DNA of 53,993 nt from the IMG/VR virus record IMGVR_UViG_3300049927_000029, positions 1-53,993 of that record; one strand, written 5' to 3'. Every line of letters starts with the position of its first letter. Positions within the stretch are counted from its first letter, which is position 1. The stretch comes from a virus. Below, piece after piece: positions 18,373-26,419 of this stretch. Made by a program: the position numbers and the translations under genes. The notes beneath the pieces are model-generated. The model was not told the origin of the DNA, made no database searches, and saw only the letters and a program-made list of their open reading frames with translations.

Positions 18373-18840
18373 ATGGCGGGCAAACGGCAGGTAGAAGCGC
18401 GGTGGGGGTTAGAGTTCTGGCAACTGGTGCGGGACTTTGCGGACCAGGGGCTACCACGGTGCGACGTAGCCAAAGCGCTCGGGTATACCCGAGACGGGTT
18501 TTACGCATTGTTGACAGCTAACCCTAGCCGCGACCCTTTCGAAGGCTCAAACATCGTCGCAGCCTACATCCGAGACTCCGGCGAAGGGTTCCGGGAGGCC
18601 TTGGAGCGTATGAGGGACGAAGGCAGGTCATGGGAATATGCCGCAAAGGCGATCGGGTATTGCGACGGTTCAAGGCTGAAGCGGGCCGCGCAAATGCGGG
18701 GGGTGATGATCGAGCTGCGAGGTAAACCGGGAAGGCCGCGAAGCACCGTATCCCGAAAACCAACCGTGTCGAATTTCACCACTAAATGGCCGAGCTGGAA
18801 CAAAGTTTACGCAATGGGGAAATCCAGTGGATCTAAGTAA
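18373..18840 (+). CDS. Duplicated-HTH DNA-binding protein (155 aa)
   Basis: Two segments look like helix-turn-helix motifs: residues about 25-45 (LPRCDVAKALGYTRDGFYAL) and about 80-100 (SWEYAAKAIGYCDGSRLKRA). A basic tail follows (KPGRPRSTVSRKP). Such proteins often sit beside phage replication genes. The ATG has AAGGAGAAG upstream; the end overlaps the polymerase exonuclease gene by 14 nt in another frame. Confidence 0.65.
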   Translation: MAGKRQVEARWGLEFWQLVRDFADQGLPRCDVAKALGYTRDGFYALLTANPSRDPFEGSNIVAAYIRDSGEGFREALERMRDEGRSWEYAAKAIGYCDGSRLKRAAQMRGVMIELRGKPGRPRSTVSRKPTVSNFTTKWPSWNKVYAMGKSSGSK

Positions 18841-19900
18841 ATGCATTTTCCTCGACACGGAAACGTTCTGCGAAACGCCCATCGGCAATGGTACGCACCG
18901 TTATGCAGAAGGCGCCGAGATCATCATGTGGCAGTGGGCGGTCGGCGATGGGCCTGTAGAGATTCGCGATGGGGATGAAGACATCAGCGACTTGCTGGAA
19001 CTCTTAGAGGATGAAAGTTATGAAGTGGTTATCCACAATTCGGCGTTTGATCGGAATGTCATCAGACACGCCACCGGAATCGGTATCCCCGTCGAGCGAG
19101 TCTTCGACACCATGGTCTGCGCTATGGCCCACTCTCTCCCCGGGAGCCTTTCTACTGTTGGAACCATCCTTGGCGTTGCCCAAGACAAAGCGAAGGATAA
19201 AGAAGGCCGCGCATGGATTGCGCTATTTTGCAAGCCTCAACCGAAGGGGCGGAAGATTCGTCGTGCGACGCGGAGTACACACCCGATAGAGTGGCAACGC
19301 TTCCGCGACTATGGCGGCCTTGACATCGAGGCGATGCGCGAGATCTACAAAAAGCTGCCACGCTGGAACTACCGCGGCGCTGAACGCGAACTGTGGCATC
19401 TCGACCAGAAGATCAACGAACGCGGCGTGCTGATGGACCTGGATCTGGCACATGCCGCAATCCGCGCTTCAGATCGCGCTCAGAAGATCCACGCGGCTGA
19501 TGCAGTGCGTTTGACCGATGGCGCCGTGACCAGCGCCAACCAGCGCGACAAGATGCTGGAGCACATCCTGGAGGCTTACGGCGTCGGGCTCCCCGATTTG
19601 CAGATCAGCACTTTGGAGCGTCGCATTGACGATCCGGATTTGCCGGTTGAGTTACGCGAACTACTGGCCGTCCGGCTGCAGGCCTCTAAAACGTCTGTCA
19701 GCAAGTACAAACGTGCGATCAGCGGTACGAGTAGTGACGGACGCATGCGCGGCACAGCGGCGTTCTGCGGGGCCATCCGCACGGGCAGGTGGGCGGGCCG
19801 GCTACTTCAGCTGCAGAACCTGCCGAGACCTTCTATCAAGAACAAAGAGATCGATCTGTGGATCGAGGCGCTCAAAAATGACGCGGAAGACCTCGTATGA
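18827..19900 (+). CDS. DNA polymerase family A, part 1: 3'-5' exonuclease and thumb region (357 aa)
   Basis: GTG start at 18827 with GGGGA upstream. Exo I FLDTET (about 8-13), Exo II HNSAFDRNV (about 70) and Exo III YGGLDIEAM mark a DnaQ-type proofreading domain in residues 1-185. Residues 185-357 are the thumb and entry to the palm, ending at RTGRWAGRLLQLQNLPRP and EDLV. In intact phage polymerases this runs on into motif A; here the chain stops and a methyltransferase gene intervenes before the palm resumes at 20613. The two parts presumably assemble, or this fragment works alone as a nuclease. Confidence 0.85.
   Translation: MDLSKCIFLDTETFCETPIGNGTHRYAEGAEIIMWQWAVGDGPVEIRDGDEDISDLLELLEDESYEVVIHNSAFDRNVIRHATGIGIPVERVFDTMVCAMAHSLPGSLSTVGTILGVAQDKAKDKEGRAWIALFCKPQPKGRKIRRATRSTHPIEWQRFRDYGGLDIEAMREIYKKLPRWNYRGAERELWHLDQKINERGVLMDLDLAHAAIRASDRAQKIHAADAVRLTDGAVTSANQRDKMLEHILEAYGVGLPDLQISTLERRIDDPDLPVELRELLAVRLQASKTSVSKYKRAISGTSSDGRMRGTAAFCGAIRTGRWAGRLLQLQNLPRPSIKNKEIDLWIEALKNDAEDLV
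19888..19900 (+). repeat. 13-bp direct repeat, left copy
   Basis: AGACCTCGTATGA, identical to 20604-20616. It contains the end of the first polymerase ORF and the ATG of the methyltransferase; the preceding GGA completes a Shine-Dalgarno. The pair brackets the methyltransferase gene exactly. Confidence 0.8.
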
Positions 19901-20616
19901 ATTTGATGAAAGGCGATTGCCTGGAAATGATGAAGCTTATTCCGGAGGGCTCTGTGGAAATGGTGCTTTGTGATTTGCCTTACGGTACGACGCAGAACAA
20001 GTGGGACGCAGTTATCCCATTCGACCAGCTTTGGGCGGAATACCGGCGGATTTGCAAAGGCGCGATTGTCTTGACCGCTGCGCAACCTTTCACATCCGCG
20101 CTAGTTATGAGCAACCCTGGACTATTCAAGTACCAATGGGTTTGGGAAAAGAGCGTGGCAACAAACTTCTTGAACGCCAAGAAACAACCGCTGCGCAATC
20201 ACGAAGACGTACTGGTTTTTTATGCTGAGCAGCCTACCTATAACCCTCAAATGGTGCCAGGGGAACGAAAGACATCTAGACGGGTAGGTACGAAGACAAG
20301 CAACTACGGCAAAGCCGATAAGGAAACTTTTTACGATTCGACCGAGCGCTACCCTCTTAGTGTCCAGCGTTTCGGCTCCAGAATTGACGGTGCAGCACTG
20401 CACCCCACCCAAAAGCCTGTCGCGCTAATGGAATACCTGATCCGTACCTACACGAACGAAGGCGACACCGTTCTCGATAACACCATGGGCAGCGGCACCA
20501 CCGGCGTTGCGTGCGTAAACGCAGGCCGGAAATTCATCGGCATTGAGCGCGATGATAAATACTTTGCCATCGCGCAGAAACGTATCGAAGACGCGATGTA
20601 TGGAGACCTCGTATGA
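19897..20616 (+). CDS. DNA (adenine or N4-cytosine) methyltransferase, class beta (239 aa)
   Basis: Motif IV DLPYG (about residues 27-31) precedes the SAM-binding DNTMGSGTTGVACVNAGR (about 192-209), the permuted order of beta-class amino-methyltransferases; HPTQKP before it is also typical. It would methylate adenine N6 (or cytosine N4) at an unknown site and protect phage DNA from restriction or mark it for regulation. No restriction partner is adjacent. The gene is inserted between two halves of the polymerase and overlaps each by 4 nt, with the 13-bp repeat at both ends. Confidence 0.85.
   Translation: MNLMKGDCLEMMKLIPEGSVEMVLCDLPYGTTQNKWDAVIPFDQLWAEYRRICKGAIVLTAAQPFTSALVMSNPGLFKYQWVWEKSVATNFLNAKKQPLRNHEDVLVFYAEQPTYNPQMVPGERKTSRRVGTKTSNYGKADKETFYDSTERYPLSVQRFGSRIDGAALHPTQKPVALMEYLIRTYTNEGDTVLDNTMGSGTTGVACVNAGRKFIGIERDDKYFAIAQKRIEDAMYGDLV
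20604..20616 (+). repeat. 13-bp direct repeat, right copy
   Basis: AGACCTCGTATGA, the second copy, containing the methyltransferase stop and the ATG of the polymerase palm ORF. Confidence 0.8.
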
Positions 20617-22460
20617 CGACGGTGATGGAAGCATGCAGCAGTGCGATACGCGGCCTTATAATCGCACCGCCTAAAAAGAAACTGGCTATCGCGGATTTGT
20701 CAAACGTAGAAGGCAGAGTGCTCGCTTGGCTGGCCGGTGAAGCATGGAAGCTCCAGGCGTTCCGTGAGTACGATACGCAGCTCGGATTAGACGGCGTTTG
20801 GTATACAGGCGAAGAGATCAACGCAGAGGCATTGCGAGGGTCACCAATCCCTGTCGAGCTGAACGCTAAAGGCGATCCAGTAACGCTCGGCCACGACCTT
20901 TACAAACTAGCCTACGCCAAGGCTTTCGGCATTGACGCGGCAGATGTCGACGGGTTCATGCGGCAGATCGGCAAGACCATGGAACTCGCTCTCGGGTTCG
21001 GCGGAGGGTGTGGCGCGTTCATTACCTTCTCGCTCGCATTCAACATCGACCTGGAAGCAATGGCGGAGAAGGCTTACGACAACATCCCAAAAAGCACCAT
21101 GGCTGAAGCCGAAAGCTTCCTCGAATGGCAGCTCGGTCAGGGCAAAAGCCAGTTTGGTTTGAGTGATCGCGCGTACACAGTCTGCGAATCCTTTAAACGC
21201 CTGTGGCGCGAATCCCACCCTGCGATCAGCAGCTACTGGAAGGATCTTGAAGAAACAATCCGTCGCGCGATCAACAACCCCGGACAGACATTGACCTGTC
21301 GAATGCATAAGGTTCGTCGGGACGGCGCTTGGCTTCGAGTCATGTTGCCGTCAGGTCGCTACCTCTGCTATCCATCCCCACGCGTAGAGGACGACGGGCA
21401 GATTACTTATATGGGCATTAACCAGTACAGCCGTAAGTGGGAACGCTTGCGCAGCTATGGTGGAAAATTCGTTGAAAACTGCATCGCCGAGGGGACCGAA
21501 GTTCTTACCGAGAAATTCGGATGGCGGGCTATAGAACGTGTGACACCTGATACCAGAGTGTGGGACGGCGACGAATGGGTATCCTTCTCCCATTGTCATT
21601 ACAGCGGTAAACAAACTACTATTCCAACCTACGGCGTTCACATGACGCCTGATCACTTGGTTTTGACCGAAGAGGGTTGGAAGAATGCATCATCGTGCGG
21701 TGGATATAACCGGGCTGCGTGTCGGTTACCTGACGGCTATCAGATACCAGGGTTCGACCGGAAAGAAATCGATGTGGGAAGTGGCGTGCGATTGCGGGAA
21801 AGTCATTCTGATGGACCCTTCCCAGTTGAAGAAGCACGCAAAGAGAGGAGTTCGGTGCTCATGTGGCTGCATGCGCAAAGCTACCCAATCCGAGAGGAGA
21901 ACACGCCACGGCATGAGTCAGCACCCCGCTTTCGCGGTTTGGCGCGCAATGATCGATCGATGCAGGCTACCGACGCATCATGCTTACAAAAACTATGGCG
22001 GTCGGGGAATAACGGTCTGCGACAGATGGCAGGAGTTATTCGAAAACTTCTGGGAAGACATGGGCGAGAAGTACAAACCGGGGCTGACATTGGAGCGCTT
22101 GGACAACTCGTTAGGCTATTCCAAGGAGAACTGCGACTGGCGTACCCGAAAGCACCAAGCGAACAACACTCGGCGCAACCACTGGTTAGAAACGCCACAC
22201 GGCCGGATGACGCTGATGGAAGCTTCCGAGTTCTACGGAGTGGGCTACACGACTTTGATGTACCGCCTGGATCACGAGTGGCCGATAGAACAAGCGCTGA
22301 TACCCGTAGGGTCTTCGACCTTGTTGATTGCGGACCACGCTCTCGGTTTGTTGTGAGAGGCACCGACGGCTTGCCGCTGATCGTCCACAACTGCACGCAG
22401 GCAGCCGCCCGCGATGTCATTGGGCGATCAATGCCGAGGATTGAAGCATGGAGACCGTAA
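20613..22460 (+). CDS. DNA polymerase family A, part 2: palm/fingers with intein (615 aa precursor)
   Basis: Motif [14 protein letters not shown] (about residue 30) supplies the first catalytic Asp, and motif [19 protein letters not shown] (about 113-130) the O-helix. Residues 1-289 and 594-615 are polymerase, with the intein at 290-593. The host sequence is cut at [12 protein letters not shown], a highly conserved palm site. After splicing the chain would end at MPRIEAWRP, before motif C, which lies on the next ORF in the -1 frame. The start overlaps the methyltransferase stop (ATGA) with GGAGA upstream. Activity needs assembly with the fragments at 18827 and 22448. Confidence 0.85.
21480..22391 (+). 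mobile_element. Polymerase intein (304 aa) with splicing ends and dual-coding middle
   Basis: In the polymerase frame the intein starts with Cys1 in [15 protein letters not shown] (block A) and has block [14 protein letters not shown]. It closes with block [18 protein letters not shown] and block G LIVHN, followed by Cys+1. All residues expected for a class 1 Cys-type intein are present. Only about 70 N-terminal and 35 C-terminal residues look like splicing domain. The roughly 200 residues between have no motif in this frame and are the shadow of an endonuclease gene read in the +1 frame (21685-22356). Confidence 0.9.
21685..22356 (+). CDS. Out-of-frame homing endonuclease nested in the polymerase intein (223 aa)
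   Basis: Complete gene in the +1 frame of the intein. The ATG at 21685 has AGAGGG at 8 nt and the TGA ends at 22356, before the intein's own end. A zinc ribbon (CDCG...CSCGC, residues 35-60) is followed by the widespread phage endonuclease core: [34 protein letters not shown] and [21 protein letters not shown]-terminal HTH-like segment ([20 protein letters not shown]) probably reads the target. It would cut intein-less polymerase genes and drive homing. Related to the helicase-intein enzyme at 24784. Family members are often labelled AP2/HNH. Confidence 0.9.
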   Translation: MHHRAVDITGLRVGYLTAIRYQGSTGKKSMWEVACDCGKVILMDPSQLKKHAKRGVRCSCGCMRKATQSERRTRHGMSQHPAFAVWRAMIDRCRLPTHHAYKNYGGRGITVCDRWQELFENFWEDMGEKYKPGLTLERLDNSLGYSKENCDWRTRKHQANNTRRNHWLETPHGRMTLMEASEFYGVGYTTLMYRLDHEWPIEQALIPVGSSTLLIADHALGLL

Positions 22461-22645
22461 AGCAGTTCGACCAGGGTTTCGAGATTGTCGTAACGGTACA
22501 CGACGAAATCATTTGTGAGGCGCCAGACGATCCAGCCTTTAGCGATGGGGTTTTAGCCGCCCTCATGGCCCAAGGCGAAGATTGGACAGAAGGCTTACCG
22601 CTCGCCGCAGCCGGCTTCGAAGCGTATCGCTACCGGAAAGGTTGA
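22448..22645 (+). CDS. DNA polymerase family A, part 3: motif C segment (65 aa)
   Basis: A 65-residue ORF in the -1 frame relative to part 2 and overlapping it by 13 nt. It carries motif [13 protein letters not shown] with the second catalytic Asp, and the usual polymerase C-terminus [21 protein letters not shown] stands 7 nt before its ATG, so reinitiation after the upstream stop is plausible. The first nine residues (METVKQFDQ) have no counterpart in the normal link between MPxIEA and GYEIV. A programmed -1 shift is unlikely because no slippery heptamer is visible. Without this piece the polymerase cannot work. Confidence 0.8.
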
Positions 22646-22667
22646 CGGCGAGTTCTATCTAGGAATA

Positions 22668-22695
22668 CTATCTAGATTCTACGGTTTCTAGATAG
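22668..22695. repeat. 9-bp inverted repeat between polymerase and HNH cassette
   Basis: CTATCTAGA (22668-22676) and TCTAGATAG (22687-22695) form a perfect stem with a 10-nt loop, preceded by a direct copy of CTATCTAG at 22655. It lies in the 60-nt gap between the polymerase end and the zinc-ribbon/HNH pair; AT-rich compared with neighbours. It may be a terminator-like hairpin or a boundary of the mobile cassette. Confidence 0.6.
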
Positions 22696-22705
22696 GTTAA
22701 ATGCG

Positions 22706-22864
22706 ATGCGCGAACAAGTATATTTCGGTCGGCTTTGTCCGAAGCACCCTGAGCTTAAGGGTGAACGCTGGATCAAGTCATACCGCTGCGTTGAATGCCT
22801 GCGGATCTACGCGAAGAAATACCGCGATGCGAAAAAGGAGATCAAAAATGGCGCCGACGCTTAA
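22706..22864 (+). CDS. Zinc-ribbon microprotein beside HNH gene (52 aa)
   Basis: Starts at 22706 and overlaps the HNH gene by 17 nt in another frame. Residues CPKH (11-14) and CVEC (28-31) form a zinc finger, followed by a Lys/Arg helix. This resembles small proteins that precede HNH nucleases in phage mobile cassettes. Probably nucleic-acid binding. Confidence 0.55.
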   Translation: MREQVYFGRLCPKHPELKGERWIKSYRCVECLRIYAKKYRDAKKEIKNGADA

Positions 22865-23384
22865 GGGTTTCACTCGCGAGTATTTGGCGTCGCTGTTCTC
22901 CTACGATCCGGAGACCGGGCGGATTACCCGTTTAGTCACTGCGGGGCCCATAGGTCGATACGGCAAAATACTTGAGTCTCCACATAACGCCGGGTACACC
23001 CAGGTCGCGCACAAAGGTAAACGGATGCTACTGCATCGCTTGGCCTACTTCTTACATACCGGAGAAACCCCGCAGGAAATCGATCACATAAACCATGATC
23101 GGAAGAACAACCGCTCCGAGAATTTAAGGGCCGCAACAAGCTCCTTGAATAAATGCAACGCTCCTATTCGGGTGACGAATAGCTCAGGGTTCAAAGGCGT
23201 TTGGTATGACAAGAGCAGGAATCGCTATACGGCTCAGTTTCAGTACCAAGGGGTAAATCGCCGGTTAGGGAGATTCAAAACTGCTGAAGAGGCTGCGCGG
23301 GCGTATGACAGGGCCGCGGTGGAAGCAGTGGGCGAATTCGCATTGACCAACGCAAAAATGGGATTGCTTAAGGAGTGCGTGTGA
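22848..23384 (+). CDS. HNH homing endonuclease with AP2 domain (178 aa)
   Basis: The ATG at 22848 has AAAGGAG at 8 nt; the longer open frame to 22701 overlaps the zinc-ribbon gene and is rejected. The HNH core is LLHRLAYFLHTGETPQEIDH followed by INHDRKNNRSENLRAAT. The C-terminus is an AP2-type DNA-binding domain (GFKGVWYDKSRNRYTAQF, then KTAEEAARAYDRAA). Free-standing enzymes of this type move within phage genomes. It sits between polymerase and VRR-NUC genes and overlaps the latter by 1 nt, so it has been fitted into the operon without breaking it. Confidence 0.85.
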   Translation: MAPTLKGFTREYLASLFSYDPETGRITRLVTAGPIGRYGKILESPHNAGYTQVAHKGKRMLLHRLAYFLHTGETPQEIDHINHDRKNNRSENLRAATSSLNKCNAPIRVTNSSGFKGVWYDKSRNRYTAQFQYQGVNRRLGRFKTAEEAARAYDRAAVEAVGEFALTNAKMGLLKECV

Positions 23385-23719
23385 TGCTGGAAAGAGACAT
23401 TGAAGCGCACCTGGTGAAACGGTGTAAGGAGATCGGGGCGCTCGCGGATAAATTTACTTCTCCGAGCCGGCGTTCGGTCCCTGATCGGCTGATCACCTTT
23501 AACGGGCGCGTGCTGTTCGTTGAGCTGAAAGCTACCCGGAAGGAACCGACAGAGGCCCAATACAGAGATCACGACAGACGCAGGGAAGTAGGGGCGGAAG
23601 TTGTGTGGACGGACAGCAAGAAGGGATGTGATTCCTTGTTGCATTCTTTGCAACGCGGCGAAAAGGTGCCGGTCTTCTCAAACTGGCAAGTGCACGAGGA
23701 AATCCACCTTGGCGATTGA
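23384..23719 (+). CDS. VRR-NUC nuclease (111 aa)
   Basis: ATG at 23384 with AAGGAG upstream. PDRLITFNGRVLFVELKA gives the PD...(D/E)xK active site of the VRR-NUC family, and residues up to 80 (GAEVVWTDS) complete the fold. Small VRR-NUC proteins are typical companions of the SNF2-type helicase in phage replication clusters and probably act as structure-specific nucleases. The end overlaps the helicase start by 11 nt. Confidence 0.85.
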   Translation: MLERDIEAHLVKRCKEIGALADKFTSPSRRSVPDRLITFNGRVLFVELKATRKEPTEAQYRDHDRRREVGAEVVWTDSKKGCDSLLHSLQRGEKVPVFSNWQVHEEIHLGD

Positions 23720-26021
23720 ATACAAACCGCACGCCTATCAAGGGCTAATCATGTCCGCTATCCATGCGACCAGGCGTTTGGCCGTGTGGGCCGGAATGGG
23801 GCTCGGCAAGTCGGTCAGCACGGCCACGGCGCTGGAAGACCTTTCGCTTACTGAGGATGTCTATCCGGTCTTGATCGTCGCACCGTTGCGCGTAGCGCGT
23901 ACCACTTGGCCGCAGGAGTACCAGAAGTGGACCCACCTTAAGCATCGCCGTGTCGTGACGATCTGCGGCGCGCTCAAGGAACGTCAAGCGGCGCTACGCA
24001 TGAAGGCTGATGTCTACACGGTCAACTTCGAGCAGCTTGAATGGCTGGTCGAGCAGCTAGGCGACAAATGGCCGTTCCGCACAGTGGTAGTCGACGAAGC
24101 AACCAAGCTCAAGGGTTTCCGGCTGCGTCAAGGTACGCGACGCGCTAAAGCCCTGGCCCGAGTTGCACATACCAAGATCAAGCGCATCATTCTGCTGACC
24201 GGTACGCCGAGCCCTAACGGTCTCCAAGACCTTTGGGGGCAGATGTGGTTCGTTGATAAGGGTGATCGTCTCGGGCGCACCTACGACGCCTTTAAGCAAC
24301 GCTGGTTCCGCGCTTCGCATACCGGGTTTGGCGTAGAAGCCACAGATCAAGCGCAAGAGCAGATCCAAAAAGCGTTAGGTGACGTGTGTATCACGATTGA
24401 CGCCGCAGATTGGTTCGACCTAAAAGAGCCGATCGTGAACGTGATCCGCGTAGAGCTGCCCTCGGCCGCACGCGTCCTTTACAAGAACATGGAAAAGCAA
24501 ATGTTCATGGACCTTGAAGGGTCGCAGGTTGAGGCGTTGAATGCCGCCGCTAAGACGCAGAAGTGCATCGCGGAAGGTACTGAAATCCTGACCGACTCCG
24601 GCTGGAAACCGATTGAGCGATTCGCCCAAGGGGATCTGGTGTGGGATGGGGTCGAATGGGTAAGTGTCTACAAATTAGCTTGCCACGGCTATAAGTCTGT
24701 CGTAGATTGCTTCGGAGTCACCATGACGCCAGACCACAAGGTGCTGACCGTCGAAGGGTGGAAAACCGCCGAGGAGATAAACAATGACGGTACAGTTGAC
24801 AGGCAAAGTGTTCGGCTACCTGACAGTGCTGGGGCGCTCGGGGTCCACGGACACCATAGCGCGGAGAGCGCTATGGGAAGCGCAATGCGTGTGCGGGAAG
24901 GTCATAACGTGCATCGGTACAAATCTGCGCAACCCCAACAGGGGAGAGAAGAAGTCTTGCGGGTGCAAGCGCCGGGAAATGCTCTTGGATGCTTGGGGTA
25001 CTCACGGCATGTCGAAGCACAGGGCTTTCCACACGTGGAGCAACATGAAATCCAGGTGCAGCAACCCAAACGACAAAGACTGGCCCAATTACGGCGGTCG
25101 GGGAATTTCGGTTTGCGAACGGTGGCGCGATTCGTTCGACGCTTTTTGGGAAGACATGGGCTCGACTTATTCGGACGATCTTACGATCGAGCGCAAGAAC
25201 AACAATGGCAATTATCAGGCAGACAACTGTCGATGGGCTACGGTTCGGGAGCAATCAAACAACACACGCTTCAACGTATGGCTGAATACTCCGGCGGGGC
25301 GTATGACGGTTGCGCAGGCGGCCAGGTTCTACGATATCAAGACTGTAACGCTTCGGGCCAGGTTGAAGAAAGGATGGCCGGTACTACGGGCGTTAGGCTT
25401 GTCTACGACCTTATCAACGCGGGTCCAAGACACCGCTTTACCGTTCGAGGAACAGACGGTAAGCCATTGATTGTCCACAATTGTTTACAAATTGCCAGCG
25501 GAGCGGCATATGTGGAAGGCGGACCGCAGTGGAAAAAGATTCATGACGAGAAGCTGAACGCATTGGAGGAAATCCTCGAAGAAGCTGCCGGCATGCCGGT
25601 GCTCGTGGCCTACAACTTTAAAAGCGATCTGGCGAGGCTCTTGGCGCGCTTCCCCCAAGGCCGACACCTGGACAAGAAGCCGGAGACGATCGACGCGTGG
25701 AACGCCGGAGAGATCCCGATCATGTTCGCCCACCCGGCCAGCGCTGGTCACGGTTTGAACCTGCAGGACGGGGGCAATATTCTGGTGTTCTTCAGCGTCA
25801 ACTGGAACTTGGAGGAGCATCAACAAATCATCGAGCGTAACGGGCCGGTGCGCCAACTGCAGGCTGGCCACAACCGCCCGGTGTTCCACCACTTCATCCT
25901 GGCCGCTGACACCGTGGACGAACTGGTATTGGAGCGCCTGCAGACCAAACGAGAGGTGCAGGAGATACTTCTAAAAGCGATGAGGGATAACGGATTTAAC
26001 CCTATAGAGGACGCGGCATGA
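23709..26021 (+). CDS. SNF2/DEAD-type helicase with intein (770 aa precursor)
   Basis: Start set at TTG 23709, with GAGGA at 8 nt and inside the VRR-NUC end; a start at 23601 would overlap that gene by over 100 nt. Motif I GMGLGKS (about residues 33-39), motif II VVDEATKLK, motif III LTGTPSPNGLQDLWG, and after the intein motif V SAGHGLNLQ and motif VI IIERNGPVRQLQAGH define a phage superfamily 2 helicase/translocase of about 464 residues once spliced. The intein occupies residues 286-591, at K-T-Q-K/C-L-Q-I in motif IV. Likely role: remodelling replication or recombination intermediates. Confidence 0.85.
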   Translation: MAIEYKPHAYQGLIMSAIHATRRLAVWAGMGLGKSVSTATALEDLSLTEDVYPVLIVAPLRVARTTWPQEYQKWTHLKHRRVVTICGALKERQAALRMKADVYTVNFEQLEWLVEQLGDKWPFRTVVVDEATKLKGFRLRQGTRRAKALARVAHTKIKRIILLTGTPSPNGLQDLWGQMWFVDKGDRLGRTYDAFKQRWFRASHTGFGVEATDQAQEQIQKALGDVCITIDAADWFDLKEPIVNVIRVELPSAARVLYKNMEKQMFMDLEGSQVEALNAAAKTQKCIAEGTEILTDSGWKPIERFAQGDLVWDGVEWVSVYKLACHGYKSVVDCFGVTMTPDHKVLTVEGWKTAEEINNDGTVDRQSVRLPDSAGALGVHGHHSAESAMGSAMRVREGHNVHRYKSAQPQQGREEVLRVQAPGNALGCLGYSRHVEAQGFPHVEQHEIQVQQPKRQRLAQLRRSGNFGLRTVARFVRRFLGRHGLDLFGRSYDRAQEQQWQLSGRQLSMGYGSGAIKQHTLQRMAEYSGGAYDGCAGGQVLRYQDCNASGQVEERMAGTTGVRLVYDLINAGPRHRFTVRGTDGKPLIVHNCLQIASGAAYVEGGPQWKKIHDEKLNALEEILEEAAGMPVLVAYNFKSDLARLLARFPQGRHLDKKPETIDAWNAGEIPIMFAHPASAGHGLNLQDGGNILVFFSVNWNLEEHQQIIERNGPVRQLQAGHNRPVFHHFILAADTVDELVLERLQTKREVQEILLKAMRDNGFNPIEDAA
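24564..25481 (+). mobile_element. Helicase intein (306 aa) with splicing ends and dual-coding middle
   Basis: Cys1 in CIAEGTEILTDSGWKP (block A), block B MTPDHKVLTVEGW, block F VYDLINAGPRHRFTVRG and block G LIVHN followed by Cys+1. The ends match those of the polymerase intein closely (shared CIAEGTE, MTPDH, VLT-EGWK, GTDG-PLIVHN), so the two are relatives in different host genes. The central 200 residues have no motif in this frame and are the shadow of the endonuclease gene read at +1. Confidence 0.9.
24784..25470 (+). CDS. Out-of-frame homing endonuclease nested in the helicase intein (228 aa)
   Basis: Complete gene in the +1 frame of the intein. GAGGAG (24771-24776) lies 7 nt before the ATG at 24784, and the TGA ends at 25470, 11 nt before the intein ends. 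Zinc ribbon CVCG...CGCKRR, core THGMSKHRAFHTW, WPNYGGRGISVCERW, FWEDMG, TIERKNNNGNYQADNCRWAT, and a C-terminal HTH-like segment (MTVAQAARFYDIKTVTLRAR). It has the same domain order as the enzyme in the polymerase intein. The canonical L-x-R-x-D-N reads T-I-E-R-K-N-N here, so one acidic position is changed, which may matter for cleavage. Confidence 0.9.
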   Translation: MTVQLTGKVFGYLTVLGRSGSTDTIARRALWEAQCVCGKVITCIGTNLRNPNRGEKKSCGCKRREMLLDAWGTHGMSKHRAFHTWSNMKSRCSNPNDKDWPNYGGRGISVCERWRDSFDAFWEDMGSTYSDDLTIERKNNNGNYQADNCRWATVREQSNNTRFNVWLNTPAGRMTVAQAARFYDIKTVTLRARLKKGWPVLRALGLSTTLSTRVQDTALPFEEQTVSH

Positions 26022-26419
26022 AGCTGAAAAAGGCGGAGCGCGAACAGGTTCGTATGAAGTACGGCGGGCGCTGCGCTTATTGCGGAGTGGTTCTATCCGA
26101 TCGGTGGCACGCCGACCATCTTGTGCCTGTACAAAGGGAATTGCTTTCAAAGCAAAACGCTAATGGTACTTGGCGTTTGGATTCCGGTAAGCCTCTAAAG
26201 CCGGAGAACGACACCGTAGAAAATATGATGCCGGCGTGCGCGCCATGCAACATCAGCAAAGGCGCTCAGACGTTAGAAGGGTGGCGTAACTGGATCGCCG
26301 GCCATGTGAACAGCCTGAACAGTTACCACCCAATCTACAGATTGGCGAAAGCATATGGGCTGATAACTGAAACCGCCGCGCCGGTAGTGTTCTACTTCGA
26401 AAAGGAAGACCTAGTATGA
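26018..26419 (+). CDS. HNH nuclease, McrA-like (133 aa)
   Basis: CAYC near residue 20 and ACAPC near 86 form the zinc pair; HADHLVPVQRE (about 33-43) and N-M-M-P-x-C...N-x-S-K carry the HNH residues. The protein is longer than the packaging HNH gene and belongs with replication genes, overlapping the helicase stop (ATGA). It may be a free-standing mobile nuclease or a repair enzyme. The end GGAAGACCTAGTATGA doubles as SD and overlapped start of the next gene. Confidence 0.8.
   Translation: MKLKKAEREQVRMKYGGRCAYCGVVLSDRWHADHLVPVQRELLSKQNANGTWRLDSGKPLKPENDTVENMMPACAPCNISKGAQTLEGWRNWIAGHVNSLNSYHPIYRLAKAYGLITETAAPVVFYFEKEDLV

What the first reader, a model, noticed from the sequence alone, without database searches (positions are those of the whole stretch)
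21665..24790. Intein block B region doubles as the ribosome site of the nested gene
In the helicase intein the codons for the two Glu after block B spell GAGGAG, an ideal SD 7 nt before the endonuclease ATG. In the polymerase intein EEGW provides AGAGGG 8 nt before the ATG. So the DNA simultaneously specifies intein residues and translation initiation of the endonuclease, at the same place in both. The endonuclease can be made independent of splicing and could be regulated separately, which may solve the folding conflict between endonuclease and splicing domains.
Basis: partly seen in the sequence, partly recalled or inferred. Interest (0 to 1): 0.85.

Follow-up and report, generated by a model that had tools for sequence, protein, structure and literature searches.

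The report
Out-of-frame endonuclease genes inside phage inteins
Two phage genes are each interrupted by a self-splicing intein whose DNA also encodes, in a shifted reading frame with its own start signal, a separate DNA-cutting enzyme; about a hundred relatives in public viral sequences share this two-messages-in-one arrangement, which gene annotation mostly misses.

Summary
But the two sites are not at the same residue (offsets 205 and 220), and taken alone neither is unusual: 84% (pol) and 30% (helicase) of synonymous recodings give an equal or better Shine-Dalgarno site.

The evidence comes from relatives. In 96 of 96 complete inteins the intein frame is open through an HNH endonuclease gene that is never in that frame (+1 in 86, +2 in 10). 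Synonymous shuffling predicts 444 intein-frame stops in 79 representatives; 0 are seen. Free-standing homologues average 15.7. Substitutions switch from intein codon position 3 to endonuclease codon position 3 inside the overlap. AlphaFold folds the intein ends and the endonuclease well; the overlapped linker is disordered. In the +1 clade 53 of 70 have an ATG/GTG with a good SD (13 expected), in three alternative places.

So both frames are real, and independent initiation best explains the +1 clade. A second clade (+2) lacks strong SDs. Out-of-frame HNHs are known in a phage methylase without an intein; I found none described for contiguous inteins, but one relevant preprint could not be read.

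The parts
20613..22460 (+). DNA polymerase A central part (PHROG 7766/17 DNA polymerase) containing the intein; one open frame of 615 aa
21480..22391 (+). Pol intein, frame 0: Cys1 (CIAEGTE) to His-Asn (IVHN), followed by Cys+1 at 22392
21480..21704 (+). Pol intein N-terminal splicing blocks A-B (frame 0)
   Evidence: pLDDT ~97
21671..21676 (+). AGAGGG Shine-Dalgarno-like site within the codons for E-E-G
   Evidence: dG -6.3 kcal/mol; not exceptional given the residues
21685..22356 (+). Nested HNH homing endonuclease gene 1, +1 frame relative to the intein, 223 aa
22305..22391 (+). Pol intein C-terminal splicing blocks F-G (frame 0), overlapping the 3' end of endonuclease gene 1
   Evidence: pLDDT ~96
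23601..26021 (+). SNF2-type helicase ORF containing the second intein (true start codon uncertain, near 23700)
24564..25481 (+). Helicase intein, frame 0: Cys1 (CIAEGTE) to His-Asn (IVHN), followed by Cys+1 at 25482
24771..24776 (+). GAGGAG Shine-Dalgarno site = two Glu codons of the intein
   Evidence: dG -8.9 kcal/mol
24784..25470 (+). Nested HNH homing endonuclease gene 2, +1 frame relative to the intein, 228 aa
25395..25481 (+). Helicase intein C-terminal splicing blocks F-G (frame 0)

Best explanation
Each element is a contiguous class-1-type intein into whose usual endonuclease insertion point (just after block B) a complete HNH homing endonuclease gene sits out of frame. The same RNA is read twice. 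(1) Ribosomes in the host frame pass through the endonuclease gene, which there encodes a stop-free linker of about 200 aa with no evident fold; the splicing blocks A-B and F-G fold around it and excise the intein. (2) Other ribosomes start at an ATG/GTG in the +1 frame behind block B, in the +1 clade guided by a Shine-Dalgarno sequence written in the intein's own codons, and make the endonuclease as a free protein. That protein is inferred to cut intein-less alleles and drive homing. Shown by computation: the anatomy, stop avoidance in frame 0, coding selection in the +1 frame, over-representation of SD and start codon, and empty sites in close relatives. Inferred: splicing, initiation at these codons, DNA cleavage and homing.
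For: Frame 0 open in 96/96 complete inteins with the HNH gene out of frame: +1 in 86, +2 in 10, in frame in none. 0 intein-frame stops in 79 representatives against 444 expected with the endonuclease protein and codon usage held fixed, while the third frame shows 854 observed and 815 expected. 68 free-standing homologues average 15.7 stops in the same frame and 1 of 68 is open. Substitutions peak at frame-0 position 3 in splicing blocks (56%) and exteins (53%), but at frame-0 position 1 (= endonuclease position 3, 56%) in the overlap. AlphaFold: splicing blocks pLDDT about 97, overlapped linker mostly 41-55, endonuclease alone 91.8. Intein model matches mini-intein structures (5i0a, 3ifj, 6frg). 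Start plus SD in 53/70 against 13.0 expected. Three start classes, each with its own SD codons. Empty sites in relatives 85-89% identical at DNA level. Same arrangement in named phages and in bacterial genomes of the class of a Lachnospiraceae bacterium.
Against: No expression, splicing or cleavage data exist here. The window's own two SDs are not unusual given the residues. The +2 clade and the divergent +1 group mostly lack a strong SD. The control frame (+2) also scores above its null for start plus SD (17 against 5.7), probably because the same SDs lie upstream of it, so the z-scores are inflated by some amount. The endonuclease model has no clear Foldseek match; PacI (HNH) comes up only at Z 6.0, which may be a common arrangement, and I-HmuI only at E 0.03 by sequence.
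Confidence: 0.85

Rival explanations
1. The endonuclease is made by programmed ribosomal frameshifting from the intein frame, giving an N-intein/endonuclease fusion, and the SD-like codons are incidental.
For: The two frames overlap over several hundred bases. In the +2 clade the endonuclease frame is usually open upstream of the presumed start in the stretch inspected and the SD is weak.
Against: In the +1 clade a stop in the endonuclease frame lies a short way upstream of the start in most cases, often within about 20 nt, leaving only a short window. An ATG/GTG is kept there in 68/70 against 30.7 expected, which frameshifting would not need. No shared slippery motif was seen in the listed upstream sequences (by eye, not by a scan).
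Confidence: 0.06
2. The intein frame is not read through: these are in effect split inteins with a free-standing gene between the halves ('fractured genes'), and frame 0 is open by accident.
For: True fractured relatives exist: in L125 (from 1351) and L109 (from 135) the N-half ends at a stop, an HNH ORF follows and the C-half reads MLVPVYDI... in another frame.
Against: 0 stops against 444 expected and 96/96 open cannot be accident; the C-half stays in the N-half's frame. The few misphased cases are sequences with ambiguous bases (L071, L090), a cut contig end (L039) or the fractured ones.
Confidence: 0.03
3. The endonuclease genes are decaying remnants, no longer translated; the SD and start codon are vestiges.
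For: A few relatives carry lesions in the endonuclease frame (L050, L059, L074), and L120 is a mini-intein that keeps only an endonuclease N-terminal remnant, as the homing cycle predicts.
Against: 93/96 have no lesion in the endonuclease frame. Substitutions are strongly concentrated at endonuclease codon position 3 even in close pairs such as window/L060 (35, 8 and 1 changes at frame-0 positions 1, 2 and 3).
Confidence: 0.05

Closest known systems
Hidden out-of-frame HNH in phage DNA methylase genes (ShiLan domain; Arsenault, Gosselin and Gogarten 2025, PMC11855218)
   Same: An HNH homing endonuclease gene out of frame in a phage gene whose own frame stays open through it; patchy distribution among phages.
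   Different: That insertion has no intein splicing blocks and is thought to stay in the protein; the authors found no ribosome binding site and suggested leaderless initiation. Here a conserved splicing domain surrounds the gene and, in the +1 clade, SDs are enriched.
Canonical full-length inteins with a nested homing endonuclease domain (for example PI-SceI; insertion site discussed in PMC6801210)
   Same: Splicing blocks A-B and F-G, with the endonuclease at the usual insertion point behind block B.
   Different: There the endonuclease is a domain of the intein polypeptide, in frame; here it is a separate out-of-frame gene and the intein carries an unstructured linker instead.
Fractured genes with split inteins and a free-standing endonuclease between the halves (Dassa et al. 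2009; cited in PMC10448857, paper itself not held)
   Same: Endonuclease gene encoded separately inside the intein region, with its own translation.
   Different: In fractured genes the host gene and intein are in two ORFs; here one continuous frame runs through the endonuclease gene.
Group I intron-encoded endonucleases of phage T4 (I-TevI, -II, -III; PMC2988022)
   Same: Endonuclease ORF inside a self-splicing element with its own SD about 8 nt before AUG.
   Different: RNA splicing, so the host frame need not be open; their SD is hidden in stable RNA structure, for which no clear sign was seen here. No Rfam match in 20500-26100.
Phage APSE-1 P45/P46 (GenBank NC_000935)
   Same: Same arrangement in polA: DNA polymerase with an HNH CDS annotated inside it.
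   Different: A deposited annotation only; P46 is annotated from an internal start (locus 2669), while the homologous reading starts at 2441 (GTG).

Membership tests
Class 1 intein (Hint splicing domain) | Cys at position 1, block B T-x-x-H, C-terminal His-Asn and a Cys/Ser/Thr at +1 | tested here: met
   C1, T56, H59, H303 and N304 invariant in 61 aligned inteins; Cys+1 in both window inteins
Class 1 intein (Hint splicing domain) | Hint fold | tested here: met
   Model residues 1-90 and 270-304 mostly at pLDDT about 97; Foldseek top hits are mini-inteins, probability 1.00, E 6.5e-4
Class 1 intein (Hint splicing domain) | Protein splicing activity | not testable with these tools
   needs expression
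Canonical intein with in-frame homing endonuclease domain | Endonuclease in the same reading frame and polypeptide as the splicing domain | tested here: not met
   +1 in both window inteins; 0 of 96 relatives in frame
HNH homing endonuclease (PHROG 374) | Sequence family match | tested here: met
   E 7.5e-57 and 4.8e-58
HNH homing endonuclease (PHROG 374) | HNH nuclease fold | tested here: inconclusive
   No Foldseek match under E 0.4; PacI HNH at Z 6.0, 75 residues, rmsd 2.4, among rows from Foldseek's list only; I-HmuI at E 0.03
HNH homing endonuclease (PHROG 374) | Cleavage of intein-less alleles (homing) | not testable with these tools
   Only indirect: empty sites in close relatives and intein more alike than extein in some pairs
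Fractured gene with split intein | Host gene and intein in two separate ORFs | tested here: not met
   One open frame through each window intein; met in relatives L125 and L109
Group I/II intron with endonuclease ORF | Intron RNA family match | tested here: not met
   No Rfam match with E up to 1 in 20500-26100
ShiLan-type hidden HNH insertion | No splicing domain in the host frame | tested here: not met
   Splicing blocks conserved and modelled at high confidence

The most novel reading that the evidence does not exclude
In this widespread phage intein class the endonuclease is never in frame by selection rather than by history: free endonuclease genes were captured by inteins more than once, the phase changed between +1, +2 and split forms, and out-of-frame overlap with a separate ribosome site was kept because it lets the nuclease be made independently of splicing while the essential host frame protects the element. 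Intein residues near block B are then chosen partly as ribosome-binding sequence.
Probability: 0.35. Interest if true: 0.85.

Novelty: new variant of a known kind. Interest (0 to 1): 0.74.

Why it matters
It gives inteins a second way to carry a homing endonuclease, as a gene overlapping the splicing protein instead of a domain of it. It supplies an unusually clean case of long same-strand gene overlap (about 600 nt, two frames under different selection, about a hundred instances). It shows amino-acid choice in one protein coupled to ribosome-site position for another. It also means that polymerase genes in deposited phages, including a Salmonella phage annotated only as 'intein-containing DNA polymerase precursor', contain unannotated endonuclease genes, and that long frame-0 linkers with random-looking sequence are apparently tolerated by splicing domains.

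Tried and rejected
Judging the two window SDs alone: rejected as evidence, since most synonymous pol versions do as well. Group I intron: no Rfam match. SD sequestering by RNA structure: unpaired probability at the SD (0.44-0.46) is similar to neighbouring stretches. Selection on linker composition: Pro and hydropathy lie below synonymous shuffles, but the shuffles were not required to be stop-free, so I draw no conclusion. Foldseek on the endonuclease: no significant match. The genome-contig scan gave one relative. Relatives that at first seemed exceptions: L071 and L090 contain ambiguous bases, L039's first intein is cut by the contig end, L125 and L109 are fractured genes, and L057 lacks an HMM hit but has an HNH-like reading in +2 (seen by eye). 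The careful tree did not finish; the quick tree was used, and its long L208 branch is an artefact of a truncated contig. Literature searches found no description of contiguous inteins with out-of-frame endonucleases; Dassa 2009, Degnan and Moran on APSE, and the 2025 preprint on actinobacteriophage inteins with 'non-canonical architecture' (10.1101/2025.01.02.630785) are not held.

Full report
What is there. The window is a 53,993-base virus record. Between 20613 and 26021 it carries part of a family A DNA polymerase and an SNF2-type helicase. Each is interrupted by an intein that starts CIAEGTE and ends IVHN|C: 21480-22391 in the polymerase, 24564-25481 in the helicase. Inside each, in the +1 frame, lies an ORF for an HNH endonuclease of PHROG 374: 21685-22356 and 24784-25470. 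The intein frame is open through the whole endonuclease gene.

Checking the finding. The positions are not the same in the two inteins: the starts lie at intein offsets 205 and 220, and the SDs fall on different residues. On the window alone the SDs are not surprising, because codons for Glu-Glu-Gly-Trp are purine-rich anyway: 84% of synonymous versions of the pol stretch and 30% of the helicase stretch bind the anti-SD at least as well.

Relatives. tblastn found the same arrangement in APSE phages of Hamiltonella, in Caulobacter phages and in a Shewanella phage, and viral contigs gave many more. Scanning these with profiles of the N-block, C-block and endonuclease gave 107 distinct inteins. 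Of these, 96 are complete, have N- and C-block in one frame and an endonuclease match: all 96 have an open intein frame, with the endonuclease at +1 in 86 and +2 in 10, and never in frame. The searches did not require an open frame through the middle, except that full-length tblastn hits favour it; the N-block and endonuclease searches do not. Cases with N- and C-block out of phase are two sequences with ambiguous bases, one cut by a contig end, and two true fractured genes. Host genes are polA (82, several insertion sites), SNF2 helicase (19), one terminase-like and one other helicase gene (the last two names rest on reading the sequence, not on a family scan).

Both frames are used. Permuting synonymous codons within each endonuclease, which keeps its protein and codon usage, predicts 444 intein-frame stops in 79 representatives; 0 are observed. 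The third frame, as control, has 854 observed and 815 expected. Free-standing homologues average 15.7 stops in the equivalent frame, 1 of 68 being open. So the intein frame is held open. Conversely, substitutions in 33 pairs (not all independent) fall mainly at intein codon position 3 in the splicing blocks (56%) and exteins (53%), but at intein position 1, which is endonuclease position 3, inside the overlap (56%). So within the overlap the endonuclease protein is what selection keeps, and frame 0 needs little more than to be free of stops. AlphaFold agrees: the splicing blocks are modelled at about 97 and the overlapped linker mostly at 41-55, while the endonuclease alone averages 91.8. The intein model matches mini-intein structures. 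The endonuclease's HNH identity rests on the family match; fold support is weak.

How the endonuclease starts. In the +1 clade the start falls in three classes: offset about 187, with SD GAGGT in the codons of His-Glu-Val; about 202, with SD in Lys/Glu-Gly-Trp; and about 220, with SD in Ala-Glu-Glu-Ile. Without choosing starts by their SD, 68 of 70 representatives have an ATG or GTG in the +1 frame within 39 nt before the conserved domain (30.7 expected from synonymous recoding), and 53 have one with a good SD (13.0 expected). The +2 control frame is also raised (17 against 5.7), so the excess should be read as strong but not as the exact z. Glu before the block-B Val is found in 23 of 25 of the 187 class but in 7 of 41 others. 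Members of the 187 class lie in several parts of the tree (L003, L126 and L110/L083 outside the main group), which hints at repeated shifts, though I did not count them formally. Stops in the +1 frame just upstream make frameshifting unlikely. In the second clade (+2, with one +1 and one split-like member, support 99) a start codon overlapping the block-B Gly-Trp codons is common, but SDs are mostly weak, so initiation there is open.

Mobility. Helicase genes 85-87% identical at DNA level around the site lack the intein, and a close polymerase relative lacks the pol intein. In some pairs the intein is more alike than the extein (window against L060: blocks 5.9%, endonuclease 7.5%, extein 14% different). 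Decay is seen as the homing cycle predicts: three endonuclease-frame lesions with intact intein frames, and a mini-intein with an endonuclease remnant.

Breadth. Beyond viral contigs, the arrangement is in Streptococcus phage Javan113 and a Lachnospiraceae genome (+1), and in a Salmonella Jerseyvirus, an Escherichia Dhillonvirus, a Pseudomonas phage and EBPR siphovirus 2 (+2). A survey of 391 genomes of the same class as the Lachnospiraceae genome found this intein family in 6; those with an endonuclease match have it at +1 with an open intein frame, and the others are mini-inteins.

Prior knowledge. The nearest published case is the out-of-frame HNH in phage methylases, which lacks an intein and has no recognised ribosome site (PMC11855218). 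Fractured genes and T4 intron endonucleases share parts of the logic (PMC10448857, PMC2988022). APSE-1 P46 shows that one instance has sat in GenBank, with what looks like a late start. A preprint on actinobacteriophage inteins could not be read and may hold cases.

Verdict. A real and widespread arrangement: contiguous inteins overprinted by an out-of-frame homing endonuclease gene. Confidence 0.85 in dual coding with independent initiation for the +1 clade; splicing, initiation and cleavage remain to be shown at the bench.

Noticed in passing
window 18827-22645: The DNA polymerase I gene is in three ORFs: exonuclease/N part 18827-19900, then a DNA methyltransferase 19897-20616, then 20613-22460 with the intein, then the C-terminal VHDE part in overlapping ORF 22448-22645. 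Relatives L030 and L031 have the VHDE part in the same out-of-frame ORF.
   Followed up: partly
window 22701-23384: A free-standing HNH_3 plus AP2 endonuclease gene lies between the polymerase and helicase genes.
   Followed up: no
L125 from 1351; L109 from 135: Fractured polA with a split intein and an HNH ORF between the halves (C-half starts MLVPVYDI), in contigs that also carry an overprinted polA intein.
   Followed up: partly
L120 3001-3447: Mini-intein in a helicase gene that keeps a +1-frame remnant of the endonuclease N-terminus (DLLGQTFGFLTVLSRAEPP), apparently an internal deletion keeping the intein frame.
   Followed up: partly
L001 2441-3091 (NC_000935): APSE-1 P46 is annotated from 2669, but the homologous reading starts at a GTG at 2441, inside P45; the N-terminal part looks missed.
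   Followed up: partly
L289 (MN336265) and L291 (OK499988), intein from 2001: Salmonella and Escherichia phage polymerases annotated as intein-containing hold an unannotated HNH reading in the +2 frame; 143 Salmonella records match the intein query, one of which was inspected.
   Followed up: partly
L294 / L298: Two inteins of this family in one gene, a 366-nt mini-intein and a 924-nt one with a +1 endonuclease.
   Followed up: no
L050_3000, L059_3000, L074_3000: Endonuclease frame carries stops or a frameshift while the intein frame is intact.
   Followed up: partly
L057 3001-3969: Intein in a different helicase gene, without an endonuclease HMM hit but with an HNH-like reading (LTLDRIDNKKGYEPGNLRF) in the +2 frame.
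   Followed up: no
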